A stretch of DNA of 14,580 bases, from the NCBI GenBank assembly GCA_929200485.1, contig CAKMZU010000052.1:1-14580 (forward strand), given 5' to 3'. The notes below the pieces were generated by a model. That model was not told the DNA's origin and made no database searches. It saw only the letters and a program-made list of their open reading frames with translations. The number at the start of each line of letters is the position of its first letter. Position 1 is the first letter of the stretch. The position numbers were made by a program, and so were the translations under genes. The DNA comes from an uncultured Gammaproteobacteria bacterium. GTDB taxonomy: Bacteria; Pseudomonadota; Gammaproteobacteria; Pseudomonadales; DT-91. Of the stretch, positions 1 through 14,580 are shown piece after piece.

Positions 1-542
1 CATCTGGTGTTAATGGGTTGCTTACGCCTCCAAATACGGATACTTTAAATAAAAATATATAAATAAATGAATAATAAAAAAAATTTTTTAATTTCATTGT
101 GATAACCATAATTTAGATTGTTGATATTGCATGCCTGGATCAATCAAAGCCAGTTAATGAAGATCTAATGCTATGCAGTCTATAAACTTTCTAGAATCTA
201 ACTCATTAATAAAATTGGTTAATTTGATTATAAAAAAAACTATTTCATCATATCTATTACCATTACTTGTGATACAAATTTAATATTATTGATTGCTATC
301 GTTGAAATAAGTTCAATGCATAATAGCAGCTGAGGTCAAGTCGACTTTTAGCATCGGTGTTAGTATGAGGGTGTTAATATGTGAGTTTAGTTGCTGTTAC
401 TCAAAGAAGTGTTGTGTGTAGAGCACTATAACTCATAGATTTTTATGCGGCTGAAATCAATAGCTTTAATGCTTGAAAACCCTTCACTTTTTCAGACGCC
501 AACGGATGCTTTCAGTGATATCGATAAGTGCTAGCATTAAGG
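1..542. other. AT-rich stretch without a supported gene
   Basis: I see no convincing gene, RNA or mobile element here. The first 62 bases are open in one rightward frame ending at TAA 60-62, and another frame ends at TAA 46-48. Either could be the 3' tail of a gene lying left of the window, but there is too little to choose. Just after this, A8 (76-83) runs into T6 (84-89), a self-complementary tract typical of bent DNA. The stretch also contains the 3' flank of the leftward lipoprotein gene that stops at 543. No clear GC-rich hairpin plus T-tract follows that gene. Confidence 0.5.
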
Positions 543-2579
543 CTAACGAGAGTGTCTTCGTTTAATGGGGTTGTATGTTTGGTATTTGGGTAATTTTGAT
601 GCATCAAAGCTTTGGGGGCTATTTTTTCTGGTACCGTCGCCTGCCTCGGGTGTGTTCTGTATTTTTATATTGGTGGCATCAAGGGACAGACTACGACGCT
701 TCGCTAACTCCTGTAAATCAGCTGGCGTCCTCTCTTTGTCGAGACTAAAATCGATGCCTCCTTCGCCAGCTAATTTTTTGACAGCCTTACTGGTATCGCT
801 GACATTTGCTTCTTCTGCTTTATTTGTGTCTGAACCTGCTTGAGAGTCCTTTTTGATTTGTCGTGAAATAAAATCATAGATTGCCCAAAGTGCAGAGACT
901 GTTGCAAGGCCAATACCTACAAAAGTGGTAATTGTTCCAGTAGTAATGCCTGAACTTTCTGAATCATTCGAATCTTCTGGAATAGAGGCTGTATCAGCCT
1001 CATCTTCCCCTTCAATGACTATGCGATTACCGAAGGTGTTTTTTGACATCTGCAATGAAAAAAACTTGGCGGACAACCTGTTATCGGAGAATAACCCTTC
1101 AGCAACTAGTTGATCAATGGTATAGCCTTTATCGATTTGCTCTTTAAGGACTTTTGAAAAATCGTCTAAGTGGACATACTCACTATCACTTTGTGATTTA
1201 TTTGAGTCGTCTGTGGTATGGATCGAGATTTGGCTTTGTTCATTCAGTAAAAATGAATGAATAGGGTAAGCAATGTCAACTGGTGGAGCGATTAGCATTA
1301 AACGACCGTTGATGATTGCGCTTGAGCGAGCGACATACCATCTCACATGATCATCTTCCTGTTTATATTTTAGTGTGTAGGATTTATCTCTCAGATCGAG
1401 AGTCAGTTTACTGCCAATCGTAGATAGAACCGATAAGGATATCGCCTCAATCTGTTTACCTTCGACCACATAGCCGTAAAACATTAATACTTGATCAGGC
1501 AGGTCTGCTGGTAATAGGTTTGCACTAATAAGGCTTTGTGGATTTAAAAGACGAATTTTTGAAAACTCCGCTAAGGCTTTTATTGCATCCGTGGCGACTC
1601 TATCTTCTATAGCGAGGATTTCCATCTCAAATTCAAGCGTATTGGAATTAATTAGCCGTTCAATTTTCACAATAAAATGCATTGGGTGAGCGATAATATC
1701 TGTTCCAGTAATCTCAATCCTTTGGCCAATCTGTAAGTCGTTAAAAGTTAGCGCTGCCTCATCATTCAAACGTTTAATAGGAATATCAGTGGTTGAATAA
1801 TTCATTTGTTTATTACTATCTGCTAGCGTGACTAAGGCTTTTTCTTTATCCAGATCAATAATGATACCTTCTTTGAGGTTAAACTTTTCAGCTTCAGTTT
1901 GTTTATCGGTTATCAGTTTTGCTGGTGCAGTTTCTCTGCTGTCTGTTTCCGTGGCGTTAAGTTCACCGGCTAGCGTTGTTAATGCTGTGTCAGTGGAGTT
2001 TTCAGTGGTAATGTCTTCTTTGCTAACTGAACCGTCAATGGTTAAAACCGTCACAACCGGTTGAATATTGACTTCGAGCGAATCAGTAGTATAGAGCGAT
2101 TGATTCACATCCATCATCAGATGGATTTCGCCAGTTGACTCTTTGAATTGAATCGGCTGATGTAGAGTAACGGTAAAGGTTAACGATTCATTGGTGGGTG
2201 TATAATCCAGTAATTTTGCTGCGGTTTCTTCTTGAATAATTCGTTTAAACCCTGTTTTTGAAAAATCCAATGTCAATGAAATAGAATCGTAGCTATCTTT
2301 TTGTATTGATTGAATCGCCAATTGGTCAATTCCACCTCGGTACGAAAGCAGTAGATCTTGATTATCAATATTGATGGTTTCTTTTTCGCCAGCGTTATTC
2401 TCAAGTGAGATTGATATAAGGCTAACAGGAAGATCTAGAAAAGAGTGAGCATCCCACGAGAGATACAGAGCAATGCTTCTTTCTTCTTTTGTGGTGCTTT
2501 CAGCTCTATCCGTTGTTTCACTACAGGCAAATAACAGGAATAGAAAGAAAAAGGGTGCAGGTTTTAGAGGTTTTTTCAT
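543..2579 (-). CDS. 678-aa lipoprotein with DUF4382-like N-terminal domain, next to virB11
   Basis: Seen: a short basic N-terminus, a hydrophobic run and a lipobox ending LLFAC, so the mature protein should begin at Cys19. Residues about 35-185 form a beta-rich domain with the LPV, LTL, SKT and QEETA blocks that recur in the lipoprotein at the right end of the window. The pattern resembles DUF4382 (from memory). Residues about 236-310 look like a small beta-barrel domain of the DUF5666 type. Residues about 545-571 form a hydrophobic helix followed by Arg and Lys, then a polar, low-complexity tail to 678. A lipid anchor plus a late membrane helix is unusual. The gene lies 90 nt downstream of virB11 on the same strand, so it may be co-transcribed with the secretion genes or use its own weak promoter (TTGAAA at 2638-2633 is the best -35 candidate). 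I see no Shine-Dalgarno before the ATG. Function is unknown; a role at the secretion machine's outer-membrane side or cell surface is inference from position only. Confidence 0.85.
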   Translation of the reverse strand: MKKPLKPAPFFFLFLLFACSETTDRAESTTKEERSIALYLSWDAHSFLDLPVSLISISLENNAGEKETINIDNQDLLLSYRGGIDQLAIQSIQKDSYDSISLTLDFSKTGFKRIIQEETAAKLLDYTPTNESLTFTVTLHQPIQFKESTGEIHLMMDVNQSLYTTDSLEVNIQPVVTVLTIDGSVSKEDITTENSTDTALTTLAGELNATETDSRETAPAKLITDKQTEAEKFNLKEGIIIDLDKEKALVTLADSNKQMNYSTTDIPIKRLNDEAALTFNDLQIGQRIEITGTDIIAHPMHFIVKIERLINSNTLEFEMEILAIEDRVATDAIKALAEFSKIRLLNPQSLISANLLPADLPDQVLMFYGYVVEGKQIEAISLSVLSTIGSKLTLDLRDKSYTLKYKQEDDHVRWYVARSSAIINGRLMLIAPPVDIAYPIHSFLLNEQSQISIHTTDDSNKSQSDSEYVHLDDFSKVLKEQIDKGYTIDQLVAEGLFSDNRLSAKFFSLQMSKNTFGNRIVIEGEDEADTASIPEDSNDSESSGITTGTITTFVGIGLATVSALWAIYDFISRQIKKDSQAGSDTNKAEEANVSDTSKAVKKLAGEGGIDFSLDKERTPADLQELAKRRSLSLDATNIKIQNTPEAGDGTRKNSPQSFDASKLPKYQTYNPIKRRHSR

Positions 2580-2669
2580 TATTTCAATAAAATATCTATT
2601 TTAGTTAAAGAGATAAGAAAAATATTCATGTATTTCAATTAGGGAATGACTATAATTTGGCGTAAATGA

Positions 2670-3704
2670 TTACGACATTTGCTTTCGCTTAAATACAGGG
2701 TCGTAATAAATTTCAGTCACCATTCGCTTACCATTCACATTATTGATTTGGACAATAACGTCGACACACATATATAGAAGCTTTTTGATGTCTTCAAATG
2801 ACATATTGCCACCGCTTTTGCTTTCTTTAATAAAGAGTACAAGTTGCTCAAAAGCTAATTTAGCTGTATTAGCGTGCATGGTGGTAATGGAGCCAGGGTG
2901 ACCACTGTTCACATTTCTTAAGAAGTAAAACGCTTCATCACCTCGGATTAATTCGGCAAGAAATATCCGGTCAGGTTTCATTCTAAGACAGCTCTCTAAA
3001 AGATCTTGTTGAGTAATTTCAGAGATGCCCTGGCCACCGGCGGAATAAAATAAACTGACGGTGTTTGGATGTGTCTCATAGAGACCTAATTCATCAACAT
3101 TTTCAATACTGATCAAGCGTTCATTCTGAGGGACAAGGTCAAGTAAGGATCGAAAAAAGGTTGTTTTACCTGATCCTGTTGAACCTGAAATAATAATATT
3201 TTTATGGGATTTTACCGCAAGTTTAAGAAAGTCGACGTAGTTTCCATCTTCTTTAAATTTGATGAGATCTTTTTCATCATCATTTAATTCTTCGGTGAAA
3301 TCTGCACAACTATCAAAAAAACCTTGGTTTTTATAATCCTCAAGCGTGAAATTGAGGGTTGACGGTTTTCGGATGGTCATGCTGACTGTGTCTGGAATTG
3401 TGGCGGTAGGGATGACTATTTGAATACGCTCACCATTAGGCAAAGAACCTGAAAGAATAGGCTTGGATGAATCCAGCTTTTGTTTTGTATAGGTTGCTGT
3501 TAACTTGGCAATTTGCGAGCAAACATTATAGTTGAGTTCGGGTACGTCAAAATATTGCCAACCTTTACTGCTTTCAGTCACCACTTCGCCAGGTTTGTTG
3601 ATAATTATTTCAGTATTTGCTGAGTCATCTAAAAAAGGTTTTAGATAATGCAGATACTGAAGTAAAGAAATGGCTTTGGGATCATTACTTTGCTCTGAGC
3701 TCAT
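2670..3704 (-). CDS. virB11: VirB11-type secretion ATPase
   Basis: This is a hexameric cytoplasmic traffic ATPase that powers pilus assembly and substrate transfer in type IV secretion systems. Counting from the chosen start (344 aa), Walker A GSTGSGKTT is at 174-182. The Asp-box region SIENVDEL is at 199-206, where most relatives have EDT. Walker B (RIFLAEL) is at 246-252, with Glu251. The His box SGHPGSITTMHAN is at 267-279. The N-terminal half (to about 150) is the family's N-terminal domain. I chose ATG 3704 over GTG 3710 because the Shine-Dalgarno AGGAG (3714-3710) sits 5 nt before the ATG and would overlap the GTG. The start lies inside the end of virB10 (20 nt overlap), which suggests coupled translation. 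The length is normal for the family. Confidence 0.95.
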   Translation of the reverse strand: MSSEQSNDPKAISLLQYLHYLKPFLDDSANTEIIINKPGEVVTESSKGWQYFDVPELNYNVCSQIAKLTATYTKQKLDSSKPILSGSLPNGERIQIVIPTATIPDTVSMTIRKPSTLNFTLEDYKNQGFFDSCADFTEELNDDEKDLIKFKEDGNYVDFLKLAVKSHKNIIISGSTGSGKTTFFRSLLDLVPQNERLISIENVDELGLYETHPNTVSLFYSAGGQGISEITQQDLLESCLRMKPDRIFLAELIRGDEAFYFLRNVNSGHPGSITTMHANTAKLAFEQLVLFIKESKSGGNMSFEDIKKLLYMCVDVIVQINNVNGKRMVTEIYYDPVFKRKQMS

Positions 3705-4854
3705 AAACACTCCTGAAGTCTAAATCTCGTGCAACGAAGATATTGATATGATCCCCTTGGTTTTTCGTTAAGACGGGTGGAATATCTATGGTGGATTCCA
3801 GTGCTTTAGCTGGCAGGTCAGCATAACTTTTTGTGTCAGTTATCTGCGCGGGAAGAATTACTCTTCCGCCTGATGCATGGTAAGCGGCATTACCGAGTTG
3901 ACTTCCTGCAGCAGCGCTAATGTCGTCAATAAAACTTAATAAAATCGCTGCACCAAACTTCTTCCAGAAAAAGTTTTGGATATGACCATCATGGCCTGTT
4001 CTACCTAGTGGATCAGTGCCGGGTGAATTGATGTCGATCAATACACCGTTAGGGGTTTCAACACGTGACCAAATAGCGAAAATACGCGATTGTCCATTTT
4101 TTAACCCACCTTGATATTCGCCAGTAATACGAGAGCCTCTTTCTAACAGTAAAACACGGCCACTGGTGCTATAAATGTTGGTGGTTAGTCGGCAGCTGAT
4201 CATGCCCGATAAGGTGGAATTTATTGCTGTCTCTAAGGCACAATCGAGAAATGTCCCTTTGGTAATAAACATATCTCGGTTAGGCAACATTCCAGCAGTT
4301 GTCGATGAATGTACCGTAGGCTGGAGAGCTTCGCTAAGGCCTGAGAGTGCCGTAGCATTTGTAGCATTTGCTAATTTTTCTTTTAGCTTTTCTGTTTTAG
4401 CGTTGTTGCCGGTATCACCGTTATAATGCATTAATCCTTTTTTGCTTTTTCTGGCTCGGACTTCTTTTTCACTCGCCTGCATTTTTATTTGGTAGGCGCG
4501 TTTCGCTTCATCTTGTTTTTTCTTGATGACGTCATCAATTGACTCTTCTTGATTTTCTTGCTGTTGTAGCTTTATTTTTTCTTCAATTTCTGGTGCCATT
4601 GCAGTTCTTGGGCTCACAGGTATTTTGGGCGCTTTGCCAAGATTGTTTTTAATGGTGAAATTTGTGGTGGTGGTTGTACCATCTAAAGGTTCAGGCGGTG
4701 TTTCTTCTGCACCACTAAAAAAAACGATTAATAAAATACCCGCAACAGCGCCGGCAGCCAGGAATAATTTAACGTGGGTAGGAAAATTTCCTTTCTTTTT
4801 TCTTAGCTGATGAGGCATGCCATCATCAAGCACCAGATCGTCTTCATTGATCAT
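3685..4854 (-). CDS. virB10: VirB10-type type IV secretion scaffold protein
   Basis: VirB10/TrbI proteins span both membranes, linking the inner-membrane complex to the outer-membrane core. Seen in the 389 aa: a short cytoplasmic N-terminus, one membrane helix at about 28-47, and a Thr-rich then Glu/Lys/Gln-rich linker (about 50-165, with a likely coiled coil near 88-137). The conserved TrbI C-terminal domain runs from about 185 to 389. Signature stretches include LLLERGSRITGEY near 235-247, the GRTGHDG turn at 284-290, and NFFWKKFGAAILLSFI, which begins the membrane-spanning antenna region. The linker is poor in proline compared with classic VirB10. The ATG follows virB9 by 4 nt, with AAAGGA about 9 nt upstream. 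Confidence 0.95.
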   Translation of the reverse strand: MINEDDLVLDDGMPHQLRKKKGNFPTHVKLFLAAGAVAGILLIVFFSGAEETPPEPLDGTTTTTNFTIKNNLGKAPKIPVSPRTAMAPEIEEKIKLQQQENQEESIDDVIKKKQDEAKRAYQIKMQASEKEVRARKSKKGLMHYNGDTGNNAKTEKLKEKLANATNATALSGLSEALQPTVHSSTTAGMLPNRDMFITKGTFLDCALETAINSTLSGMISCRLTTNIYSTSGRVLLLERGSRITGEYQGGLKNGQSRIFAIWSRVETPNGVLIDINSPGTDPLGRTGHDGHIQNFFWKKFGAAILLSFIDDISAAAGSQLGNAAYHASGGRVILPAQITDTKSYADLPAKALESTIDIPPVLTKNQGDHINIFVARDLDFRSVYELRAK

Positions 4855-4858
4855 CGCA

Positions 4859-5719
4859 TTAATCCTTTAAATGGTTCTTTATTGTTCGAATCACTTCCGG
4901 GGATGTTGTGCCGGTTGGAATACCTATGCCACGTGAATCAAAGGATTTATTGAAAATACAAGCTACAGCTTTGCCCTTTCGAAAGGTAAAACGTTTTTTG
5001 ACTTTGTGTATGGTGATAATGTCAGGGTAATGCGGGTTTATATGTGTGTTCACCAAACTTTCAGAACCATCGTCATTAACCGTATAAATGGCGGGCATTT
5101 CGCGATTGTTGGCAAATTTAACATAGGTAAATCGCCCGTCGTCGAACATTAAATCTGGCGTCACTTCATCTGATCCTTTAAACCAGTAATTCCAATTTCT
5201 AGGGTGTGCTCTATTCATGGAAGACAGGCTATGGTTCAGAAAAGACTTAATTTTGCTTTGCTCTTTGTTTTTTTGTTCCTGGCCTTTGAGTGCTAACTTT
5301 TTCTTCTTGTCGAATTGCGGGTACTTAAAGTTAACTTGAAACACCATTTCCTCATTTTTGTCGTCAGGCCATTTGGCATCAAGCTCGAAGTTATAAATCC
5401 TTGAACTGGTGATAACGGTCATATTGGTTAACGCATTGTCAGCAACAGGCTTCAAGAAAATATGATTTTTAACTGGGACTATGTCCCATGCATCTGGGTC
5501 TCCCATGGCGATTTGTAGAATGCTCTCATCGGGGGAAAATTTCACATGGGTTGAGTAACCAAAATGCCCAATGATCTGAACAATATCATCAGGATTATGG
5601 TTGATATAGGTGATTCTTGAATCAAATAAGCCAGGCTTAGGCGCTTTTATAGCCAAAGTGGGAGTGGCGAGGCTGGCCCAGCATGCGAACACAATACTCT
5701 TTTTCAACAATGACATCAT
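4859..5719 (-). CDS. virB9: VirB9-type outer-membrane core component
   Basis: VirB9 forms the periplasmic and outer-membrane ring of the core complex with VirB7 and VirB10. Seen in the 286 aa: a Sec signal peptide (cleavage likely after TLA at about 21-23), an N-terminal beta domain, a Lys/Gln-rich linker at about 138-160, then a C-terminal VirB9 domain. The C-terminal domain has the signature NYWFKG (177-182), DLMFDDGRFTYVKF (189-202) and the ending GIPTGTTSPEVIRTIK. The start is a double ATG 3 nt after virB8, with GGAG 6 nt upstream of the first ATG, so the first is preferred. The C-terminal domain normally binds VirB7, yet no virB7 gene is visible in this window. Confidence 0.95.
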   Translation of the reverse strand: MMSLLKKSIVFACWASLATPTLAIKAPKPGLFDSRITYINHNPDDIVQIIGHFGYSTHVKFSPDESILQIAMGDPDAWDIVPVKNHIFLKPVADNALTNMTVITSSRIYNFELDAKWPDDKNEEMVFQVNFKYPQFDKKKKLALKGQEQKNKEQSKIKSFLNHSLSSMNRAHPRNWNYWFKGSDEVTPDLMFDDGRFTYVKFANNREMPAIYTVNDDGSESLVNTHINPHYPDIITIHKVKKRFTFRKGKAVACIFNKSFDSRGIGIPTGTTSPEVIRTIKNHLKD

Positions 5720-5722
5720 GGA

Positions 5723-6451
5723 TTACTCCATTGACTCTGGATCAATTCGATAGTGAACAACTTGGAAGCCTAGTGGGTTTAGATAGCGAATAGTCTGGGC
5801 GCTAGGCGTGTTATAGTATGAAAAAGTCAAGGTCACTTGCCAATGGCTGCTAACTGAGTAGCTTCCCTTGCTTTGAGTTTTTGTTATTCGGATTAGTGCG
5901 GTTTTTCGCTCGATACCGCTTACTACTTCAGACTTGATGAAGGTTAAGCTTTTAATAGCAATCCCCACATTGATGTCATAACCATAAATGCTAACAGGCG
6001 CATCAGCGTTTTTTTCCGGGTTGTTGAAATTGGCATATTCAACTTGAACTTGAGGGGTAGACAGAATACCGATAATTTCTCTCGCATGCTCTATGGTATT
6101 CCAGGAGTATGATTCTCGATTTAACAGGTACTTATGTATCCAGTATTTATCGATAACTTCTTGAGTCGATTCGTTGATAATATTGTTGGAGATGTCAAGT
6201 TTTGAAATAACATCGACAATACCTGTGCTTTTATCAACACTGACAACGTAGGGTTCAATGGTCTTTAAAGGCATCATCACGGTGATGGCTAGTGCCATGC
6301 AAAATGCAATACCGCTGGATATTCCTGCAATCATCCATGCAGTTTTTTCAGATTTTTTAACTCGATCAGAAAATTGAACATCCCAAGACCGTGCTTCTTT
6401 GAAATATTGTTGGTCAATATTCCCTTTTGTTTTTTTTTCCTTTTCAGTCAT
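5723..6451 (-). CDS. virB8: VirB8-type inner-membrane assembly factor
   Basis: VirB8 is a bitopic inner-membrane protein whose periplasmic NTF2-like domain helps assemble the secretion channel. Seen in the 242 aa: a Lys/Glu-rich cytoplasmic N-terminus, one membrane helix at about 37-60, a periplasmic domain with the conserved region VEPYVVSVD-like (IEPYVVSVD, 65-73), and the family's C-terminal signature NPLGFQVVHYRIDPE at 225-239. It is first in the tightly packed vir operon. No good Shine-Dalgarno precedes the ATG. Codons 5-8 contain a run of nine As (6438-6430), where a slip would truncate the protein after a few residues. Upstream lie 131 nt with an inverted repeat. Confidence 0.93.
   Translation of the reverse strand: MTEKEKKTKGNIDQQYFKEARSWDVQFSDRVKKSEKTAWMIAGISSGIAFCMALAITVMMPLKTIEPYVVSVDKSTGIVDVISKLDISNNIINESTQEVIDKYWIHKYLLNRESYSWNTIEHAREIIGILSTPQVQVEYANFNNPEKNADAPVSIYGYDINVGIAIKSLTFIKSEVVSGIERKTALIRITKTQSKGSYSVSSHWQVTLTFSYYNTPSAQTIRYLNPLGFQVVHYRIDPESME
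6430..6438 (-). repeat. A9 homopolymer in virB8 codons 5-8
   Basis: Nine consecutive As lie in the coding strand 12 nt after the A of the virB8 ATG, encoding part of Glu-Lys-Lys-Thr. Homopolymers of this length near a start codon are known sites of replication slippage or transcriptional slippage in bacteria. In this copy the frame is intact. Whether it varies is unknown. Confidence 0.7.
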
Positions 6452-6582
6452 CGGAGCGCCTGAGAGCTAGGTAAAAGTCCAAAGTTTACGACCTACTATT
6501 TATTGTAATACAAAATTAATTTATTACATTATTTGCTGTTAAGTGAATTGTGTATGTTTAATGAAAATTTTTTATTTTATTC
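6452..6582 (-). promoter_or_regulatory. Probable vir operon promoter region with inverted repeat
   Basis: These 131 AT-rich bases separate the 441-aa lipoprotein gene from virB8, both leftward. They contain a perfect 7-bp inverted repeat, TGTAATA (6504-6510) and TATTACA (6522-6528), separated by 11 nt. On the minus strand TTAACA (6542-6537) could be a -35 box, with TTAATT (6519-6514) 17 nt further, exactly in the repeat's centre. An operator-over-promoter arrangement is therefore possible but unproven, because the -10 match is poor. No small ORF that could be a VirB7 lipoprotein fits here. Confidence 0.3.
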
Positions 6583-7908
6583 CTATGGGATTGTTGTATG
6601 TTGGTTTTTATCAGAGTTATTTACTTTTAGTAAATTATTTAGTTTTTCAATTAAATAATTTTTTTCTTCAATATCTGTCGATTCTATATAGTTGTACGTG
6701 CTCACATCTTTTGTGATCTCTGGCAGGTCATTTCTGTCGTTTTGGCTTTTATAGGGTTTTAAATAATGCGTTAAGTAACGATTAAATGTTAAAGTGTTTT
6801 TACAATCGTAAACCAATATGTTTTCAATATTACTCTGTTCTTCTTTGTTGTAATAAAAAATCTTAGGAATGTTTTTGTCTGTTGATTGATTAATTCTTTT
6901 GAGTAGTTCGGTAATAAAAGTTTCAGGCGATTCGGGTGGTTCAGGTGATTCGTTGGTGGGGTTGGAGGTAATCTGATTGACCGTTTGGCAAAAGGATAAA
7001 TAGGCACTGTAACTTGTTTTATGATTAAAAAATGAGATATCAATCATTTCAATGTTTTTTCTTTTGAGCTCTCGTGTCCAGTAGTGCAGAACATCTTTTA
7101 CATCTTGATTTAGTAGCAGACCATTAAAGAGACTCCCATCATTTTGCTCGGCAATCGCTGAGGACCAAAGGATCTCATGCTCTACATGTTGTTCTATTAA
7201 AACCTTTCCTGCGCTGTTGATGAACGCTTTGAGTGCTGTAGAGGTTTTAATGGGGTCATCTTCATGGTGCCAGTGATTCGTGGTAGAGGTGACTTCACCT
7301 GTTAATGGATACAGGCTGAGGATGTTGGTGTTTTTGTTTATTTCGATAAAAAATATAGATGCCTGCTTGGCTGCTGATTCTTTTATCGACTCATCAATCT
7401 CAATGTGATTGGGTACAAAAAATACCAATGTGTATGTTTTTGGGAATTGACTATTTATCCATTTCAAGAGTTTTTTTTCGGTGTTTATTGTCTCTATAGG
7501 TTGTTGATATAGTAATTGATTGAATGTTGGTATTTTTGCTGGAGAGACTTGGTAAATATTGTTTTGATGAAGGTCTTCAATAGTTATTTCAATGTCGCCT
7601 TTTAAATATTCTGATATTTTATTAGCTAAATGAAGCTCATCGCTTTTTTTTTGGTTTGCAGTATCAGGTTTGTCTGTCGGTACTTCCTTTTCCTTGTTTT
7701 TTTGAGGTTTCTTGTCTGTATTGTCTTCTTCTTTTTGTTGGGGTTCAGGTTCAGAGTTTGTTTGTTTTGTTTGGGTATCTTTTTTAATGAGGTTATTTAT
7801 TCTTTTTTCTTCAGAATCTTTATTTATGTTTTCTGTTGGTGTTGGTTCTTTAGTGCAGCCAAAAATAAATAAAAAAGTCAATGTGTAGTAAATTAATGCA
7901 TTTTTCAT
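6583..7908 (-). CDS. 441-aa putative lipoprotein of unknown function
   Basis: Seen: a hydrophobic signal ending FIFGC, so a lipid-modified Cys18 is likely. Next comes a Lys/Glu/Pro/Gln-rich linker (about 19-93) of the kind that tethers domains to a membrane. A globular part runs from about 94 to 441, interrupted by a Pro/Glu/Ser-rich stretch at about 316-330. In the globular part a hydrophobic strand (YTLVFFVP, 159-166), the segment KVLIEQHVEHEILW (235-248) and IEMIDISFF (286-294) follow each other much as strand, His-loop and Cys-loop do in clostripain-like peptidases, but no Cys sits at the catalytic position. This resemblance is weak. The gene lies 131 nt upstream of virB8 on the same strand and diverges from the next gene. 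The coding strand contains A9 at 7652-7644. It is very AT-rich, and I see no Shine-Dalgarno. I do not recognise the protein. Confidence 0.75.
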   Translation of the reverse strand: MKNALIYYTLTFLFIFGCTKEPTPTENINKDSEEKRINNLIKKDTQTKQTNSEPEPQQKEEDNTDKKPQKNKEKEVPTDKPDTANQKKSDELHLANKISEYLKGDIEITIEDLHQNNIYQVSPAKIPTFNQLLYQQPIETINTEKKLLKWINSQFPKTYTLVFFVPNHIEIDESIKESAAKQASIFFIEINKNTNILSLYPLTGEVTSTTNHWHHEDDPIKTSTALKAFINSAGKVLIEQHVEHEILWSSAIAEQNDGSLFNGLLLNQDVKDVLHYWTRELKRKNIEMIDISFFNHKTSYSAYLSFCQTVNQITSNPTNESPEPPESPETFITELLKRINQSTDKNIPKIFYYNKEEQSNIENILVYDCKNTLTFNRYLTHYLKPYKSQNDRNDLPEITKDVSTYNYIESTDIEEKNYLIEKLNNLLKVNNSDKNQHTTIP

Positions 7909-7983
7909 GATGATTATAAAATTAATTTAATATTTTAAGTGTACTATCAATTTAATTTTTTTTTATAATGTGATTTTTACTTT
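7909..7983. promoter_or_regulatory. Divergent intergenic region with T9 run and TATAAT
   Basis: These 75 very AT-rich bases separate two divergent genes and must carry both promoters if neither is transcribed from further away. Rightward, a perfect -10-like TATAAT lies at 7964-7969 and is directly preceded by, and shares one base with, a run of nine Ts (7956-7964). No good -35 box is found at the usual distance. The transcript would start only about 8 nt before the ATG at 7984 or 17 nt before the ATG at 7993. Leftward, TTGATA (7950-7945) is a possible -35 box with only a weak -10. Confidence 0.3.
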
Positions 7984-8907
7984 ATGGTTAGTATGAATTA
8001 TATTCGAATATTTTTAGCTGTTTTTCTTGTCGGTGTTGTTTATGCAAAAGCTGATGTTTATCAAACGTTTTTTACCGAGAAACAAAGGAATATATTAAGT
8101 AGCTCAACAAAAATGGCATCGTTGAATCGGCATATGGCTTATGCTATAAAAAGAATGCACCTTGTGCCAGCTGAGCAAAAGCCAATGGCAGGCTTTTATA
8201 AATCGGCTTTTAGTGATAGTGAAAACATGCAACAGTTTTTTATGTTGTCAGGCTTTAATCCAGTGAATCGTCAGGTTATTTTGTCTGTTTTAGATTCAGC
8301 ACATCAGGAATCAGATTACGCATCGCTTTTTTCTACTTGCCTTGAAACGCTTTCAGCTGCGAATGTGGCTTTTAATTTGTCGATTGATCCTGCCATTCAT
8401 TTAGAGAGAAATATTCTGGTTTATATAAAAGTCCTCAATAAAGACCATTTTAAGCAATTTGTGACAGCACTATATGCCATCGAGGAGGGCTTGAGTGCTG
8501 ATGAAATGATTTACTTATTGTATCGATATGTAACCTCTGTCATTTTCTTGAATAGACTGTACGAAAATGATTTGGATTACCCCAAACCTTCTGATGGTGT
8601 CAGAGCGACCAAGATTGATATTTCGAGATTTCATAAACAGCTTCAAGCAAAGCGAACTGGAGTTTCGGCTTTCGGGCAGTTTATTGATGATACCATTGGG
8701 AGGGAGGTATTCTTCTTAGGTCTGGGATTAACCACTACCTTTGCGGCAACCCTGGGCTGCAGTAAACTCTATTCAGTGGTAAGCAAAAAACCCTTTGAGT
8801 TTAAAGCGGCGGCTACAACCGCAGCAGTGCCAATGACGGTTATGGTTGCGTTATTTATCGCCAAGCGACTGTACAAAAAGCGGCATCCGAAATATGGATC
8901 TGGTTGA
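7984..8907 (+). CDS. Exported protein with two C-terminal membrane segments, unknown function
   Basis: Seen in the 307 aa: a signal peptide (about residues 5-22, likely cut near YAKA), a mostly helical soluble middle part (about 25-235), a hydrophobic segment at about 241-265, a short loop KKPFEF, a second hydrophobic segment at about 273-293, then a basic tail (RLYKKRHPK). The mature protein would therefore sit in the inner membrane by a C-terminal hairpin with most of its mass in the periplasm. Two starts are possible, ATG 7984 and ATG 7993. Neither has a Shine-Dalgarno, and 7993 gives a more typical signal peptide. It diverges from the 441-aa lipoprotein gene, so a link to the secretion cluster is possible but not shown. 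I do not recognise the family. Confidence 0.75.
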   Translation: MVSMNYIRIFLAVFLVGVVYAKADVYQTFFTEKQRNILSSSTKMASLNRHMAYAIKRMHLVPAEQKPMAGFYKSAFSDSENMQQFFMLSGFNPVNRQVILSVLDSAHQESDYASLFSTCLETLSAANVAFNLSIDPAIHLERNILVYIKVLNKDHFKQFVTALYAIEEGLSADEMIYLLYRYVTSVIFLNRLYENDLDYPKPSDGVRATKIDISRFHKQLQAKRTGVSAFGQFIDDTIGREVFFLGLGLTTTFAATLGCSKLYSVVSKKPFEFKAAATTAAVPMTVMVALFIAKRLYKKRHPKYGSG

Positions 8908-8924
8908 TGTGACGTTTTGTGGAG

Positions 8925-8968
8925 GCGACTCCTGATTGCTCTTAAAAGCGGAAAGAAAATGGAGTCGC
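8925..8968. repeat. Inverted repeat in the convergent gap
   Basis: GCGACTCC (8925-8932) and GGAGTCGC (8961-8968) are perfect complements around a 28-nt loop, between the 307-aa gene and the convergent PPOX gene. A shorter alternative hairpin, GGAG with CTCC (8921-8932), competes with it. No T-tract follows on either strand, so it is at best an atypical terminator. Confidence 0.3.
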
Positions 8969-9014
8969 AGCAAGGGTGTTTAAGTAATGGGTGTTATCAG
9001 GGAGGGCGAGTTTA

Positions 9015-9407
9015 TCAGTCATCAGTCAGCGTTATTTTGATAAATGCTCGCTTTTTGATCTTCCCCGAAAGGCAAGAAAAGAAATCAAGAAGACGCATTT
9101 GCCAACCATATTTTTTAACCAGGGCTTTGTGTGCGTTAGACTCAGCTTCTTTGGGTAAAATTTCACCCAAGGCCTCTTGCCAGTCGCCGAGAAGTTTGCC
9201 ATTCACAGTGCAGGGATTAAGTTTTACTTCAGAAAAGTTTCTGAGGCGTTTAACTTTGCCTGCATTGCTTGCGGAAAAGCAATAGAGAGTGCCCCCATCC
9301 TTGGCAAACCAGACGGGGGTGTTTACCCAGCTACCATCTCGCTTTTTCGTTGATAGCGAAACGTAAGCTTGATCATCCAGGTTGTTCAGATTTTGGTTGT
9401 TGTTCAT
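9015..9407 (-). CDS. PPOX-class (pyridoxamine oxidase-like) flavin oxidoreductase
   Basis: The 130-aa product matches the split-barrel family of small F420- or FMN-dependent oxidoreductases. The pattern is YVSLSTKKRDGSW (15-27), TPVWFAKDGG (30-39), LYCFSASNAGKVKRLRN (41-57) and a later VKLNPCTVNGKLLGDW (61-76). The physiological substrate cannot be told, and in an organism of this type FMN or haem-like ligands are as likely as F420. I prefer ATG 9407 to the upstream TTG 9428, which adds seven mostly basic residues outside the family pattern. The start lies 35 nt inside the end of the exoribonuclease gene on the same strand, so the two are probably co-transcribed. The rightward frame at 8917-9285 over the same DNA is a shadow. 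Confidence 0.85.
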   Translation of the reverse strand: MNNNQNLNNLDDQAYVSLSTKKRDGSWVNTPVWFAKDGGTLYCFSASNAGKVKRLRNFSEVKLNPCTVNGKLLGDWQEALGEILPKEAESNAHKALVKKYGWQMRLLDFFSCLSGKIKKRAFIKITLTDD

Positions 9408-11364
9408 TTTTCGCTTTCTTATTTTCAAAGGATAATCTAACTAGCCGATCATCCTTATCAATGGAGTGGATAAATACCTCAACCGTCTCTTTTAATTTAA
9501 ATGTGTGGTCGTCAGTGACAAGCTGAAGTGATTCTTGTTTAAATTTAGATGGCTTACCTAAGGTTTTAACGGGTATTTGGCCAAGTAAATCAAAATCACT
9601 TAAGAAGACGCCAATAAAACGATGGTTAATTGATGCGATTTCTCCTTTAAGTGGTTTGCCAATAAAGTTTGTTAAGTAATCGCATTTTAACGCATTTTCA
9701 CAATCCTTTTGAGCTTCTCTGGTGGACAGGGTTGTCTGATTAAGGGTTTCGACTGTCTCAGGGGTAACTGTTAAGGCCGGTTGACCATTAATCAGGGCTT
9801 TGATGATTCGATGAACCAACAAATCACTGTATTTTCGAATGGGTGAGGTAAAGGTTGTATAGCAATTGAGCCCAAGACCAAAGTGAGGAGTAGTGTCAGC
9901 AGACCATTCACTGCGTTTCATTTTCTTTCGTAAAATGTCTTTGATGGGTAGTGCTGAGTTTTGGACACTTGGGCTTTTAAGAAAATCAAGGTAGCCGGTA
10001 AGCTCAAAGACTTTGTCGGAGTCTGATTCTGAAAATTCAGAATCAATTAATTTCTTAACCCCAGGTTTCTGGTCTGGCTTAAATCCGTCATGAGATAAGT
10101 ACAGAGCGCTTTGCGTGTGGCTTTCAAGGTAGGCTGCTGTTGCGGCATTGCAGGCAATCATACACTCTTCAACGAGTTTTTGTGCCTGATTTCTCTCGCT
10201 CTTTTCAATGTTGGTGATTTTGCCAGTCTCATCCATCTGGTAGCGGTAATCATAGTACTCATCCATCATTGATGCATTGGTTTCTCGCCACTGTTGTCTT
10301 GCGTTGGTTAATTGGTTTAATTGGTCAAGCAGGCGGTTAATTTCTTCACTGAAGCCTTCAGACTCTTTTAATAAATATCGGTTAACTTCGTCATATCCGA
10401 GTTTCGCTTTGGAATGGATCACCGCATTGATGTAGTTTGTTTCAAGAATTTTACCGTCAGTATCGAGTGCCATTTGGCACACTAATGCCAGTCTGTCTTC
10501 ATTTGATCGAAGTGAACAAACATCTGAGGCAAGAATGTCCGGTAACATGGATACTTTTTGACCAGGAAGATAAAGGGAGCTGCCTTGCTTGGCTGCAATT
10601 TTATCCAGCGGTGAATCCTGAGTGACAAAAGTGGAAACATCAGCGATCGCCACTTGAAGATTCCAGCCGCTTTCTGTTTTCTCAATCCACAAGGCGGCGT
10701 CTAAATCTTGCGTATTTGTACCATCGATAGTGACAAAACATTTGTCACGGAGATCTGTTTTTGTGGCAGCAGATACTTCAAGACATTGCTCGGCGGTTTG
10801 CCTGATAGCTTCGATTTCGTCATTCTTCCATTGCCTTGCCGGTATGCCAAATTTCACAATAGAATAGCGATGTTCAATGAAGGCGTCAGATGCCTGCCCA
10901 ATCTTCTCTATGACTTGTGCCTGCACACGCCCTTCAGTTTTAAACGGGTGCTGGGAAATTTTGGCCTGAATGATGTCGCCGTCATTAAGTTCTTTGCGAA
11001 ATTTGGGGGGGATAAAAATCCACCGATTGATTTGTTTATGCTCCGGGATGACGAACATTTGATTGTTTTTGACTTTCACTGAGCCAATAAAGGTATCAAA
11101 GGAGGAGCGAATAAATTTCTCTATCTTGGCAATGGGCTTTTCGTCTTGTTTTTGACTTTTCTCAAGTTTAAACGTGATAAAGTCACCATGAAGCAGTCGG
11201 TCCATTTCGGATTGCGGTAACAGATACTGTTCGTTGCTGCCTTCTTTGATGACGAAACCAAAACGCTTGGAAGTGCCTTTTACCATGCCTTTAAGAGTAG
11301 GATTAGCTTCTCGAATGTCCTGTTTTAGCTGTTTTAATTGTGATAAAGCTGATAAATCAAGCAT
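9373..11364 (-). CDS. rnb: RNase II-family 3'-5' exoribonuclease
   Basis: This family degrades single-stranded RNA processively from the 3' end. At 663 aa it is close in length to RNase II and well short of RNase R. Seen: N-terminal cold-shock-type domains (about 25-155), a central RNB catalytic domain (about 200-525), and a C-terminal S1-like domain (about 570-645). The active-site block reads TIDGTNTQDLDAAL (212-225). Asp214, Asp220 and Asp222 match E. coli Asp201, Asp207 and Asp209, but the fourth, E. coli Asp210, is Ala223. Tyr265 in SLYLPG matches E. coli Tyr253, and TSPIRKY (506-512) carries the Arg equivalent to E. coli Arg500. LKCDYL near 559-564 is more RNase R-like. The ATG has no visible Shine-Dalgarno (preceded by six Cs). 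It is the first gene of a pair with the PPOX gene and diverges from smrA. Activity may be lowered by the missing aspartate. Confidence 0.93.
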   Translation of the reverse strand: MLDLSALSQLKQLKQDIREANPTLKGMVKGTSKRFGFVIKEGSNEQYLLPQSEMDRLLHGDFITFKLEKSQKQDEKPIAKIEKFIRSSFDTFIGSVKVKNNQMFVIPEHKQINRWIFIPPKFRKELNDGDIIQAKISQHPFKTEGRVQAQVIEKIGQASDAFIEHRYSIVKFGIPARQWKNDEIEAIRQTAEQCLEVSAATKTDLRDKCFVTIDGTNTQDLDAALWIEKTESGWNLQVAIADVSTFVTQDSPLDKIAAKQGSSLYLPGQKVSMLPDILASDVCSLRSNEDRLALVCQMALDTDGKILETNYINAVIHSKAKLGYDEVNRYLLKESEGFSEEINRLLDQLNQLTNARQQWRETNASMMDEYYDYRYQMDETGKITNIEKSERNQAQKLVEECMIACNAATAAYLESHTQSALYLSHDGFKPDQKPGVKKLIDSEFSESDSDKVFELTGYLDFLKSPSVQNSALPIKDILRKKMKRSEWSADTTPHFGLGLNCYTTFTSPIRKYSDLLVHRIIKALINGQPALTVTPETVETLNQTTLSTREAQKDCENALKCDYLTNFIGKPLKGEIASINHRFIGVFLSDFDLLGQIPVKTLGKPSKFKQESLQLVTDDHTFKLKETVEVFIHSIDKDDRLVRLSFENKKAKNEQQPKSEQPG

Positions 11365-11578
11365 GGGGGGTTCTCAAAATATTAACATATCAAGATTAGC
11401 AGAATTCCGGTTCTCGTTAAATGGGCAAAGGCAGAAATATTTGGGTTAATATGCTCCCAAAATGCAATATAAAGCCTTGTAACGACTTAAAATATAAGGA
11501 GAATCTTACGAAGATCCGTTTTGATACAAAAACAGAAAAATGAAAGAAGATGTATGAAAAATAATGGGGGGATAATTG
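11365..11578. promoter_or_regulatory. Divergent region between the exoribonuclease gene and smrA
   Basis: These 214 bases must hold promoters for both genes. A 6-bp inverted repeat, TTTGGG (11440-11445) with CCCAAA (11456-11461), flanks a 10-nt loop and could be a hairpin or operator. I see no strong -35/-10 pair on either strand. The run GGGGGG (11566-11571), 7 nt before the ATG of smrA, probably acts as its ribosome binding site. Confidence 0.3.
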
Positions 11579-12139
11579 ATGTCGGATGATGAATTTCTCA
11601 ATGAGATGAAAGGTGTTCAGCCCTTGACGCAAGATATGGCCAATCCGGGCAAAAAACCCCCTTCATCAGATTATAAAGCCCGTAAAAGTGCTGCCGAAAA
11701 TTTTACCGAAAAAGAGGAATCGCCTTTTTCTTCATTATTGAAAAAACAAGTGTTACCTCATGATATTGTCGGGTATAAAAGGCCAGGTGTTCAAGATGGC
11801 GTCTTTCGCCAGTTTCGTTTAGGTAAATACACGATTGATGCGCGTTTGGATCTGCATCAGATGAGTATAGAAAAAGCCAGTAAGGCGGTATTTTCCTTTG
11901 TTAGAGAGTCAAGAGAATATGATCTCAGGACATTGTTGATCGTTCATGGTAAGGGTAATCGTGGCGATAGGAAGGCATTGCTTAAAAACTACACATTACA
12001 GTGGCTTGAAGAATTGCCAGAGGTCTTAGCTTATCATTCAGCAACACCAAAAGACGGTGGTACAGGGGCTCTATACGTTTTATTAAAAAAATCAGATAAG
12101 GCCAAAGAGAAAAACCGCGAGCGGTTTGGTCTACGCTAA
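11579..12139 (+). CDS. smrA: SmrA-type Smr domain protein
   Basis: Smr domains bind and often nick DNA or cut RNA, and SmrA/YdaL is a stand-alone form in gammaproteobacteria. At 186 aa it matches E. coli SmrA closely in length and plan: an N-terminal region with VQPL near 13-16, a middle segment RPGVQDGVFRQFRLGKY (68-84), then the Smr domain. Domain motifs are LDLHQ (90-94), IVHGKG (121-126) and GGTGALYV (160-167). Here the LDLH motif is complete, while E. coli SmrA as I recall it has LNLL at this spot, so this copy looks more likely to keep the hydrolytic signature. I chose ATG 11579 with a G-rich ribosome binding site over the adjacent TTG 11576. It appears monocistronic, as 233 nt separate it from the next gene. 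Confidence 0.92.
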   Translation: MSDDEFLNEMKGVQPLTQDMANPGKKPPSSDYKARKSAAENFTEKEESPFSSLLKKQVLPHDIVGYKRPGVQDGVFRQFRLGKYTIDARLDLHQMSIEKASKAVFSFVRESREYDLRTLLIVHGKGNRGDRKALLKNYTLQWLEELPEVLAYHSATPKDGGTGALYVLLKKSDKAKEKNRERFGLR

Positions 12140-12372
12140 ACGGTTAAAAACTCGCAAATCATTGCTAACTTCGTTAGACTCGCTGGCTTTAATAAAGTCA
12201 GTGCGCTATTGAGAGAGAAAGCTTAAGGATTTTCTTCTCATTTTGACTGATTTTTATCGGAATTTTGGGGTTTAATTGAATAATGTGCAGCCTAATGGGG
12301 CTATTTTGACGCAAATCCATATAATACCCACTGAATTTAATAGCACCTTTATATAATAAAAAAGGACAATGT
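12140..12372 (+). promoter_or_regulatory. Leader region of the flavin reductase gene, with hairpins and a TATAAT
   Basis: The region between smrA and the flavin reductase gene holds two small hairpins: CTAAC/GTTAG (12165-12169 and 12173-12177) and a 9-bp stem with two G-T pairs (12181-12189 and 12195-12203, loop TAATA). Neither is followed by a T-tract, so they are not clear terminators. A perfect -10-like TATAAT lies at 12320-12325 without a good -35 partner. A second TATAAT at 12352-12357 is too close to the ribosome binding site AAAGGA (12361-12366) to be useful. The likely promoter of the three-gene run is therefore near 12300-12325. Confidence 0.3.
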
Positions 12373-12852
12373 ATGAGCTTTGATCCTCGTGAATTTAGAA
12401 ACGCCCTTGGCCGATTTGCTACAGGTGTTTGTGTTATCACTGCAAAACCTGAAGACCATCATGCGTTTGGTATGACTGTCAATTCCTTTGCCTCGGTATC
12501 GCTTGAGCCACCATTGGTTCTGTGGAGCTTGCAAAAAAACTCCGATTGTTTTGCTCTGTTCGAACGCGTGACGCATTTTACCGTCAACGTGTTGTCTGAA
12601 GATCAGCAGGCAGAATCCAATCAGTATGCGAAAAAAGGTGATCATGCATTAACTGAAGGGTCTTATCGCATGGGTAAGTCGACAAGCCCAGTATTGAAAG
12701 GTGCTATGACGAGTTTTGAATGTGAAATGGATGCAGTCCATGATGGCGGTGACCATATCATTATTGTCGGTAAAGTCGTTGAGCTTTCTGATCATCCTGC
12801 GGAAAAATCGCCTTTAGTATTCTTCCAGGGTAAATACCGCGAACTAAAGTAA
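12373..12852 (+). CDS. Flavin reductase-like FMN-binding protein
   Basis: This family reduces free flavin with NAD(P)H or is the reductase partner of two-component monooxygenases. The 159 aa cover one complete FMN-binding split-barrel domain. Seen: RFATGVCVIT (14-23), GMTVNSFASVSLEPPLVLWSL-type core (33-53, with the flavin-contacting NSF and the SLEPP turn), GGDHIIIVGKV (125-135) and a C-terminal PLVFFQGKYREL (147-158). No monooxygenase gene is nearby, so the partner and substrate are unknown. The ATG has AAAGGA 6 nt upstream. It is first in a run with the Nudix and peroxiredoxin genes (gaps of 16 and 29 nt), which suggests a redox or oxidative-damage theme, by inference. Confidence 0.92.
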   Translation: MSFDPREFRNALGRFATGVCVITAKPEDHHAFGMTVNSFASVSLEPPLVLWSLQKNSDCFALFERVTHFTVNVLSEDQQAESNQYAKKGDHALTEGSYRMGKSTSPVLKGAMTSFECEMDAVHDGGDHIIIVGKVVELSDHPAEKSPLVFFQGKYRELK

Positions 12853-12868
12853 CTCCTAGGTAGCAACA

Positions 12869-13396
12869 ATGATAAATTTTTGCTCAAATTGCGGTGGTAA
12901 AGTCCATGTTAGCGTGCCACCTATGGACAATCTACCTCGCCATATTTGTGGTGATTGTGGGCAAATTCATTATCAAAATCCAAAAGTGATTGTTGGTACA
13001 TTGCCTGTATTTGAAGGTAAGGTCCTGTTATGCCAGCGGGCGATAGAGCCAAGGTTGGGGTATTGGACGTTACCTGCAGGCTTTCTGGAAAATCATGAAA
13101 CTGCCTTCGCTGGCGCGAAACGCGAAACTCAGGAAGAATCGGGAGCTGAGTATAATCAGAGTCAGCTCTACCGAATTTATGATATTCCAAGAATTAGTCA
13201 GATTTACATTATGTACATTGCGCAACTGACGCATGCGACCCTTGATCCCGGTGAAGAGAGTCTTTCAGCCCGATTGTTTGAGGAGTCTGAGATTCCTTGG
13301 GATTCGCTTGCATTTCCTATCATGAATGATATTTTAAAAGACTTTTTTATCGATAGGCAAAAGGGAGCATTTCCCGTTGCTGAGAAAGTTCTTTAA
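12869..13396 (+). CDS. Nudix hydrolase with N-terminal zinc ribbon
   Basis: Nudix enzymes hydrolyse nucleoside diphosphate derivatives. The 175 aa begin with a zinc-ribbon motif, Cys5-x2-Cys8 and Cys27-x2-Cys30, like that preceding the Nudix domain in NADH pyrophosphatases. The Nudix box at 71-93 is complete: Gly71, Glu77, Arg85-Glu86, Glu89-Glu90 and Gly92. The substrate cannot be told from sequence. The full NudC architecture and its SQPWPFPxS motif are absent, so this is a shorter zinc-ribbon Nudix family member rather than NudC. The gene lies 16 nt after the flavin reductase gene with only a weak ribosome binding site (AGG about 9 nt upstream), which suggests translational coupling. Confidence 0.92.
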   Translation: MINFCSNCGGKVHVSVPPMDNLPRHICGDCGQIHYQNPKVIVGTLPVFEGKVLLCQRAIEPRLGYWTLPAGFLENHETAFAGAKRETQEESGAEYNQSQLYRIYDIPRISQIYIMYIAQLTHATLDPGEESLSARLFEESEIPWDSLAFPIMNDILKDFFIDRQKGAFPVAEKVL

Positions 13397-13425
13397 CACC
13401 ACTCATAAAGTGAATCAGGAAAGCC

Positions 13426-13905
13426 ATGACTCTTAAAGCTGGAAACAAAGCCCCTGCTTTTTCATTGAAGAATCAGGCGGGCGAGACCGTTGCCCTCAAA
13501 GATTTTGTTAATAAAAAACACGTCCTTCTTTATTTTTATCCCAGAGCCAGTACGCCAGGCTGTACGGTTCAGGCACAAGGAATCAGAGACCATCTGAAAG
13601 CGTTCGCTGATCTTGATATTGCAGTCATTGCGGTTAGCCCAGATCCTGTCGATAAAATTGCCAAATTTGTTGATAAGCATGAATTAAACTTCCACTTGTT
13701 AGCGGATGAAGATCATGCAATCGCTGATAAATATGGGGTTTGGGGGTTGAAAAAGTTTATGGGTAAAGAATTTATGGGCTTGATTCGCTCAACTTTCCTG
13801 ATTGATAAAAACGGTAAACTGATCGAACAGCTCCCCAAGTTCACGACAAAAAATCATCACGATGTAGCACTTGATGCATTTAAGAAATATTTAGGTGAAA
13901 GTTAG
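13426..13905 (+). CDS. bcp: Bcp/PrxQ-type thiol peroxidase, one-Cys form
   Basis: This peroxiredoxin reduces H2O2 and organic hydroperoxides in the cytoplasm. The 159 aa contain one AhpC/TSA domain. The peroxidatic Cys46 lies in STPGCTVQAQG (42-52). In E. coli Bcp the resolving Cys sits five residues later (Cys50), and here that position is Gln51. I see no other cysteine in the protein. It would therefore have to be recycled by an external thiol (one-Cys mechanism), which is known for some members of this family. AGGAAA lies just upstream of the ATG. It is last in the run with the flavin reductase and Nudix genes and is followed by the hairpin at 13926-13996. Confidence 0.93.
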   Translation: MTLKAGNKAPAFSLKNQAGETVALKDFVNKKHVLLYFYPRASTPGCTVQAQGIRDHLKAFADLDIAVIAVSPDPVDKIAKFVDKHELNFHLLADEDHAIADKYGVWGLKKFMGKEFMGLIRSTFLIDKNGKLIEQLPKFTTKNHHDVALDAFKKYLGES

Positions 13906-13925
13906 CCAATCGAATTTTTGATTAT

Positions 13926-14007
13926 ATAAGAAGGTAAGCTAAATTTAACGAATCAGAAGATGATTGTCTGGTTAGTGAAATGAAATACCTTCTTATTGTT
14001 TTTTTTT
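13926..14007 (+). terminator. Terminator-like long stem with T9 tail, overlapping the next gene's start
   Basis: ATAAGAAGGTA (13926-13936) and TACCTTCTTAT (13986-13996) are a perfect 11-bp inverted repeat. The 49-nt loop can form an inner stem of AATCAGA (13951-13957) with TCTGGTT (13967-13973). TG and then nine Ts (13999-14007) follow the outer stem directly. This is the layout of an intrinsic terminator for the peroxiredoxin run, although the outer stem is AT-rich and the loop long. The right arm and T run are at the same time codons 3-9 of the following lipoprotein gene, whose ATG (13980) lies inside the loop. It could thus work as an attenuator. Confidence 0.45.
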
Positions 14008-14580
14008 AACAGCTTGCACCAAGTCAGCGCAAGTTGATATGTCATCAATTATGCCTTCCACGGTATATTTAGGTTTTTTGACTGAACCTTTAGCAGTCGC
14101 ATCCCTCCCGGTCAAGCTGAAGACCATCACCTTTATAAAAAACGATAAATCGTCAACTACCATAGAGTTGAATAAGCCACTTGATTTAGCGGGTTTTTCT
14201 CCTGACTTTATTGGCCGCATTCAATTGCCTTCAGGTACCTATCAAAAAATTGTCCTCACCTTGGGTTTGAGTAAGACAAGACCACAGGTATTTAATCAAG
14301 AAGAAACGGCCTGGATTCAACCCCTTATGGTTTCCAGTGAAGATAGCGTTATTCCAGAACAAATGGATGAAATAACGCTGGAGGTTGCACTCGCAACGCC
14401 CAGGCGTTTGCTATCAGGTCAAGATGCTTTATGGCAGTTAACCTTTGACGGTATGCATTCATTAAGCTTGAATCGACAGGATGAAGGGATTATTGAATTT
14501 TTTCCAATCTTTAGATTGGATGCTGTTAAGGATATGATGATTTCTGGCAAGTTGGAAAGTTTTAATGAAACGAGTCTGAT
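13980..14580 (+). CDS. Lipoprotein, paralogue of the 678-aa protein, 3' partial and frame-disrupted at T9
   Basis: From ATG 13980 the frame reads MKYLLIVFF and then stops at TAA 14007. A second frame, open from 14006 to the window end, begins LTACTKSAQV. Adding one T to the T9 run joins them into MKYLLIVFFLTAC, a textbook lipoprotein signal with Cys13. The downstream frame has no stop and is homologous to the 678-aa lipoprotein at 543-2579. Both have SLPV or DLPV followed by alternating hydrophobics, then LTL, SKT, six residues and QEETA. The domain resembles DUF4382 and the protein continues beyond the window. Internal ATGs at 14039 and 14051 would give a form without a signal peptide and have no ribosome binding site, so I prefer the joined reading. 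Whether this copy is off in a phase-variable gene, rescued by slippage, a pseudogene or a sequencing error is open. An upstream mini-ORF (13960-13983, eight codons with stop) overlaps the ATG. Confidence 0.7.
13999..14007 (+). repeat. T9 homopolymer in a lipoprotein signal peptide
   Basis: Nine Ts cover the end of codon 7 through the first base of the stop in the ATG 13980 frame. A tenth T would restore a full lipoprotein gene. UUUUUUU followed by UAA is also a plausible -1 ribosomal or transcriptional slippage site. Confidence 0.75.

What the first reader, a model, noticed from the sequence alone, without database searches (positions are those of the whole stretch)
13980..14580. Lipoprotein gene switched out of frame by one base in a T9 run
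Start codon and signal peptide lie in one frame (MKYLLIVFF then stop at 14007). The lipobox LTAC and the whole homologous domain lie in the frame reached by one extra T. The match on both sides of the run is too good for chance. A homopolymer in the signal peptide of a surface lipoprotein is where contingency loci are found, and T7 before a stop is also a slippery site. A homopolymer miscall or recent decay are the plain alternatives.
Basis: partly seen in the sequence, partly recalled or inferred. Interest (0 to 1): 0.75.

Follow-up and report, generated by a model that had tools for sequence, protein, structure and literature searches.

The report
Lipoprotein gene split at T run
One copy in a family of large lipoproteins has its start and its body in different reading frames at a run of nine Ts, most likely an ordinary switched-off or misassembled copy, although the family itself looks unusual.

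Summary
ATG 13980 opens nine codons ending at TAA 14007-14009; the lipobox (14006-14017) and a stop-free domain to 14580 lie in another frame. The downstream half is a real gene piece: it matches paralogs (E 6.6e-12; 1.4e-15), has normal codon usage and a confident all-beta fold. The upstream half is only suggestive: 11 of 140 T>=7 runs in the contigs examined have a similar start plus hydrophobic stretch, and the start-to-Cys distance (35 nt) is shorter than in 20 relatives.

The contingency reading is not shown. T9 is ordinary here (227 overlapping matches), no relative has a long signal-peptide tract, the hairpin after the run is unremarkable, and I had no reads and no ortholog. I favour a recent off allele (0.45) over assembly fault, lost 5' end, reversible switch or bypass.

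The better lead is the family: 14 copies in this draft, 9 in a sister genome, 0 in four other genomes of its taxonomic family. Two of 17 scanned copies have recognised toxin-like C-terminal domains; 8 of 10 complete C-termini are basic.

The parts
13980..14009 (+). short start frame: ATG, nine codons, TAA
   Evidence: signal-like but with a chance rate of 11 of 140
13999..14007 (+). T9 run, overlapping the signal-peptide codons and the first base of the stop
14006..14017 (+). lipobox codons, in another frame than ATG 13980
   Evidence: same layout in 20 relatives
14012..14580 (+). body: N-terminal all-beta domain, weakly DUF4382-like, stop-free to the scaffold gap
13426..13905 (+). upstream neighbour, peroxiredoxin of the AhpC/TSA type; in the sister genome a different gene follows it
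543..2579 (-). second, unbroken copy of the family (678 aa), directly after the virB11-like gene
2670..6451 (-). type IV secretion genes: T2SSE ATPase, TrbI, CagX (Pfam) and an unscanned ORF 5723-6451 in virB8 position (name recalled)

Best explanation
One member of an expanded family of large lipoproteins has had its start and its body put out of register by a recent length change in a poly-T stretch of the signal-peptide codons. As assembled the copy is off: translation from ATG 13980 gives nine residues and stops, and the body has no start codon that would give a lipoprotein. Shown: the two frames, the homology, the coding signature of the body, intact signals in relatives. Inferred: that ATG 13980 is the ancestral start, that the change is real and recent, and that nothing rescues it. 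Whether it can switch back is not shown.
For: Frames. Body still codes: codon score 0.065 against a mean of 0.076 for 60 long ORFs, other frames -0.19 and -0.24; post-gap frame 0.081; fold pLDDT 85.7. 20 of 20 relatives with an assembled N-terminus have start and lipobox in frame. Poly-A/T stretches are natural in these AT-rich signal regions (up to T8 or A9 in relatives). A 5' homopolymer frameshift leaving an 8-residue product is documented for inlA (PMC2831843, abstract).
Against: The start could be chance (11 of 140) and lies 35 nt from the Cys codon, where relatives have 42-66 nt. Nine of 14 copies in this draft are cut by a contig end or N gap, so the assembly is weak just here. No ortholog to time the change.
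Confidence: 0.45

Rival explanations
1. Assembly or consensus fault, or a collapsed mixture of strains: the gene in the organism is intact.
For: Draft of 512 contigs; a 10-N gap lies 571 bases beyond the T run; 9 of 14 family copies in this genome and 6 of 9 in the sister genome are cut by gaps or contig ends; 20 of 20 other copies are unbroken at the signal.
Against: Of 44 runs of 9 or more examined, none was flagged as a split gene, so there is no sign of widespread homopolymer faults; but that test was insensitive (threshold 0.08, above the mean score of long ORFs). Sequencing platform and depth are unknown to me.
Confidence: 0.22
2. The 5' end was lost or replaced: ATG 13980 and its hydrophobic stretch are chance, and the gene is a truncated pseudogene.
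For: Chance rate 11 of 140; start-to-Cys distance shorter than in 20 relatives; the gene is absent after the peroxiredoxin in the sister genome and in 80 related loci.
Against: The body shows no decay over 190 codons, and the lipobox itself is preserved.
Confidence: 0.13
3. Reversible contingency locus: run length varies in the population and switches the lipoprotein on and off.
For: Run in signal-peptide codons of a lipoprotein; body intact; another copy, C67, has an in-frame A13, one of only seven runs of 11 or more in the genome. 5' poly-A/T tracts mutate often (PMC2831843, abstract).
Against: T9 has 227 overlapping matches in the genome; no relative has a long tract in the signal region; no evidence of length variation.
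Confidence: 0.12
4. Bypass: RNA polymerase slippage on the run, or -1 ribosomal frameshifting on U UUU UUU before UAA, makes some full-length product.
For: Heptamer 14000-14006 followed by UAA. Transcript insertions rise with A/T run length in E. coli and Buchnera (PMC5574713, passages). An A11 run rescues tssM1 of Citrobacter rodentium at about 20-25% (PMC4256274, passages).
Against: Hairpin after the run: z -2.72, 3 of 200 shuffles as stable, but 92 of 1103 genome windows and at least 6 of 59 sites after T>=7 runs, this one included, fold as well. PMC5574713 saw no transcription error that restored a frame. Conservation cannot be tested.
Confidence: 0.08

Closest known systems
inlA of Listeria monocytogenes, 5' poly-A frameshift (PMC2831843, abstract and section list)
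   Same: A homopolymer near the start of a surface-protein gene leaves a peptide of fewer than ten residues.
   Different: There reversion frequencies and several strains were studied; here one assembly, poly-T, unproven start.
tssM1 of Citrobacter rodentium (PMC4256274, passages)
   Same: A/T run next to a stop splits a secretion-related gene.
   Different: A11, product demonstrated; here T9 and no expression data.
Lipobox effectors with APD1/APD2 domains of Amoebophilus asiaticus (PMC3482391, passages)
   Same: Lineage-expanded proteins: signal peptide, lipobox, conserved N-terminal part, variable C-termini with toxin-type domains.
   Different: Different bacteria and, by name, a DUF4382-like rather than APD domain (APD profiles not compared); here a transmembrane segment in 11 of 22 copies and basic tails.
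DUF4382 (PF14321)
   Same: The N-terminal domain matches weakly (window piece E 9.5e-4; G002 C258 3.6e-5).
   Different: Both below the curated cut-off of 25 bits; complete family proteins are 678-1062 aa with further parts.

Membership tests
Bacterial lipoprotein (this copy) | Start codon and lipobox in one frame | tested here: not met
   met in 20 of 20 relatives with an assembled N-terminus
DUF4382 (PF14321) | Score over the curated cut-off (25 bits) | tested here: not met
   19.8 bits for window 14039-14578; 24.4 for G002 C258, 15.9 for G002 C212
Homopolymer contingency locus | Frame broken at a simple repeat near the start | tested here: met
Homopolymer contingency locus | Tract unusually long for the genome | tested here: not met
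   227 overlapping T9 matches on both strands; seven runs reach 11 or more
Homopolymer contingency locus | Reversible length variation in the population | not testable with these tools
   no reads; no ortholog found
Programmed -1 frameshift site | Slippery heptamer before an in-frame stop | tested here: met
   14000-14006 then TAA
Programmed -1 frameshift site | Stimulatory structure beyond background | tested here: not met
   92 of 1103 windows and at least 6 of 59 post-T-run sites as stable
Transcriptional slippage site | Transcripts of several run lengths | not testable with these tools
   no RNA data
Lipobox effector families with polymorphic C-termini (APD type) | Shared lipobox plus N-terminal part, different C-terminal toxin-type domains | tested here: inconclusive
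   lipobox and N-terminal part shared; recognised domain over cut-off in 2 of 17 scanned: Pertussis_S1/Scabin-like in G002 C258, Peptidase_C80 just over cut-off in G000 C75. C-terminus of the window copy not assembled
Lipobox effector families with polymorphic C-termini (APD type) | APD1 or APD2 domain | not tested
   no APD profile compared
Type IV secretion substrates | Basic C-terminal tail (recalled as a feature of some VirB/VirD4 substrates) | tested here: inconclusive
   8 of 10 complete relatives against 3 of 85 other frames, but the window copy's C-terminus is missing
Type IV secretion substrates | Coupling protein in the genome | tested here: inconclusive
   PF02534 and PF10412 find nothing in G000 or G002; both are drafts, 93% and 98% complete, and some systems are recalled to work without one
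Type IV secretion substrates | Translocation shown | not testable with these tools
   needs experiment

The most novel reading that the evidence does not exclude
A lineage-specific family of lipid-anchored proteins (lipobox, beta domain, transmembrane segment, variable toxin-like C-terminus, basic tail) is the substrate set of a type IV system without a recognised coupling protein, and single copies are switched by A/T runs: T9 in the signal peptide here, A13 before the transmembrane segment in the C67 copy.
Probability: 0.06. Interest if true: 0.75.

Novelty: new member of a known kind. Interest (0 to 1): 0.32.

Why it matters
As a frameshift it is ordinary and cannot be told from an assembly fault without reads. 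Its value is that it leads to an expanded family of effector-like lipoproteins, some with toxin-like C-terminal domains and most with basic tails, in two related genomes that both carry virB genes. If these are delivered or contact-dependent effectors, copies being on or off would matter for how such bacteria deal with hosts or competitors, and that is testable.

Tried and rejected

Rows dropped before counts: C75 and C337 lack an assembled N-terminus, so 20 of 22 relatives were counted for the signal. Twelve of 22 relatives with a missing or gapped C-terminus were left out of the tail count. C166's hydrophobic peak (residue 71) was not counted as transmembrane. The T9 search listed only its first 100 places; 44 distinct runs were examined (first 30 places, 13 contig pieces, six loci with longer runs). 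The 24 of 43 was counted by me from the rows; the frames are stop-free, not proven genes, and the split test there is insensitive. Cys positions were partly read by eye, because the script picked an inner Cys in C67, C111 and C119, found no K/R-bearing start in C57b and missed the lipobox of C57a; C67 and C111 have other possible Cys residues nearer the start. One search printed only the six most stable post-run sites, so 6 of 59 is a minimum. Five relatives (C129, C166, G002 C123, C262, C71) were not scanned with Pfam.

Full report
Where it lies. The window is bases 1-14580 of a 14,849-base contig of a draft genome (G000: 3.66 Mb, 512 contigs, 93% complete). It stops exactly where a 10-N gap begins; 259 bases follow. 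The nearest named relative found is the MAG 'Cellvibrionales bacterium CLI1_bin_2' (peroxiredoxin 87% identical). The source is thus a gammaproteobacterium of that kind; its host is unknown to me and no output named it a pathogen.

What is there. T9 occupies 13999-14007. ATG 13980 gives nine codons and TAA at 14007-14009. The lipobox codons (14006-14017) and the following domain are in another frame, open to 14580, closed upstream by TGA 13976-13978, and without ATG, GTG or TTG before ATG 14039.

Is it more than chance. Downstream, yes. The body matches a G002 paralog with E 6.6e-12 in a genome search and seven of eight relatives with E 1.4e-15 to 7.4e-8 in a small local set with composition adjustment off. 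Its codon score is 0.065, against a mean of 0.076 for 60 long ORFs on which the model was trained; its other frames score -0.19 and -0.24; one frame after the gap scores 0.081. That post-gap piece matches relatives only weakly (best E 0.025), so its belonging to the same gene is likely, not shown. AlphaFold2 gives the body a confident all-beta fold (mean pLDDT 85.7, seven aligned sequences). Upstream it is only suggestive: 11 of 140 T>=7 runs in 136 kb of this genome have a start codon, K/R and a hydrophobic stretch in one of three frames, since T-rich sequence reads as hydrophobic residues. The start-to-Cys distance is 35 nt; 20 relatives have Cys at residue 15-23, i.e. 42-66 nt (partly by eye).

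Relatives. A profile of the N-terminal domain finds 14 copies in G000 and 9 in G002 at E <= 0.01, none in three other genomes of the genus and one of the family. In 390 genomes of the order, a profile of the longer shared part matches over most of its length only in G000 and G002 (three candidates at most scored per genome); seven others match only its first 200 or so positions. In a large protein set that profile found one protein, which appears to be G002 C258, and the C53 copy found relatives of 83, 74, 39, 35 and 34% identity (the 74% one appears to be G002 C212). Of 21 copies with an assembled N-terminus, 20 have start and lipobox in frame; only this one is split. Its best match in either genome is 26% identical, whereas five other G000 copies have G002 partners at 45-74%. 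In G002 another gene follows the peroxiredoxin, and none of 80 peroxiredoxin loci shows the domain within the flanks held.

What the family looks like. The eight copies complete at both ends have 678-1062 aa. They share a lipobox and the beta domain. In 11 of 22 copies other than this one a strongly hydrophobic segment lies around residues 470-690, with K/R close behind it. C-termini differ: Pertussis_S1 and Scabin-like in G002 C258 (39.3 and 34.5 bits, cut-offs 21.3 and 27), Peptidase_C80 in G000 C75 (23.9 bits, cut-off 23.8); no C-terminal domain over cut-off in the other 15 of 17 scanned. Eight of ten copies with a complete C-terminus have three or more K/R in the last six residues, against 3 of 85 other stop-free frames of 200 or more codons on the same contigs (Fisher p 6e-8, too small because family members are related). 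Four of four C53 relatives from the protein set, the partial G002 one left out, do too. The window's second copy (543-2579, minus strand) lies 90 bases after the virB11-like gene. virB9 occurs in G000 and G002, not in the four other genomes of that taxonomic family; two further genomes of the order have it without a match to the body piece. Coupling-protein families PF02534 and PF10412 were not found in G000 or G002, and in G002 a different, shorter ORF follows virB11. The layout resembles the lipobox APD effectors of Amoebophilus (PMC3482391, passages). That these proteins are effectors, and of what, is inference.

The run. T9 has 227 overlapping matches in the genome and four in this window. 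Of 44 distinct runs of 9 or more examined, 24 of the 43 others lie inside stop-free frames of 200 or more codons and none was flagged as a split gene; that test is insensitive, because its threshold lies above the mean of long ORFs and it needs coding on both sides. Seven runs reach 11 or more; one, A13, is in frame inside the family copy C67. No relative with an assembled start has a run above A9 in its first 90 coding bases. So there is no family-wide signal-peptide tract.

Mechanism. Most likely (0.45) a recent length change in the run has put this copy out of frame and off. Next, an assembly fault or strain mixture (0.22): 9 of 14 copies in this genome are cut by gaps or contig ends. Then a lost 5' end (0.13), a reversible switch (0.12), and bypass by slippage or frameshifting (0.08). 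For bypass, U UUU UUU precedes UAA, transcript insertions rise with A/T run length (PMC5574713, passages) and A11 rescues a secretion gene in Citrobacter (PMC4256274, passages); but the hairpin is unremarkable and PMC5574713 saw no frame restored.

Verdict. The family is the part worth following.

Noticed in passing
window 543-2579 (-) and relatives in L102-L108, L198-L210: Expanded lipoprotein family, 14 and 9 copies in two related genomes, with variable C-termini and basic tails; one copy directly follows the virB11-like gene.
   Followed up: partly
L102 (G000:C67), 3169-3181: A13 run in frame inside a family copy, just before its transmembrane segment; one of seven runs of 11 or more in the genome.
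   Followed up: partly
window 2670-6451 (-): Type IV secretion genes (T2SSE ATPase, TrbI, CagX, and an unscanned ORF in virB8 position) in a genome where two coupling-protein families were not found.
   Followed up: partly
window 6430-6438 and 7644-7652: Two more runs of nine (A9 on the minus strand), inside stop-free frames of 247 and 447 codons: the virB8-position ORF and the lipoprotein-like ORF 6583-7908.
   Followed up: no
L139 (G002:C202), 1501-1518: An 18-base A run read as F codons near the start of a PhzF-like ORF (name recalled), in the sister genome; may be an assembly fault.
   Followed up: no
L140 (G000:C30), 1501-1513: T13 just after a pseudopilin-like ORF (name recalled) that may continue in another frame; frame break or misassembly.
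   Followed up: no
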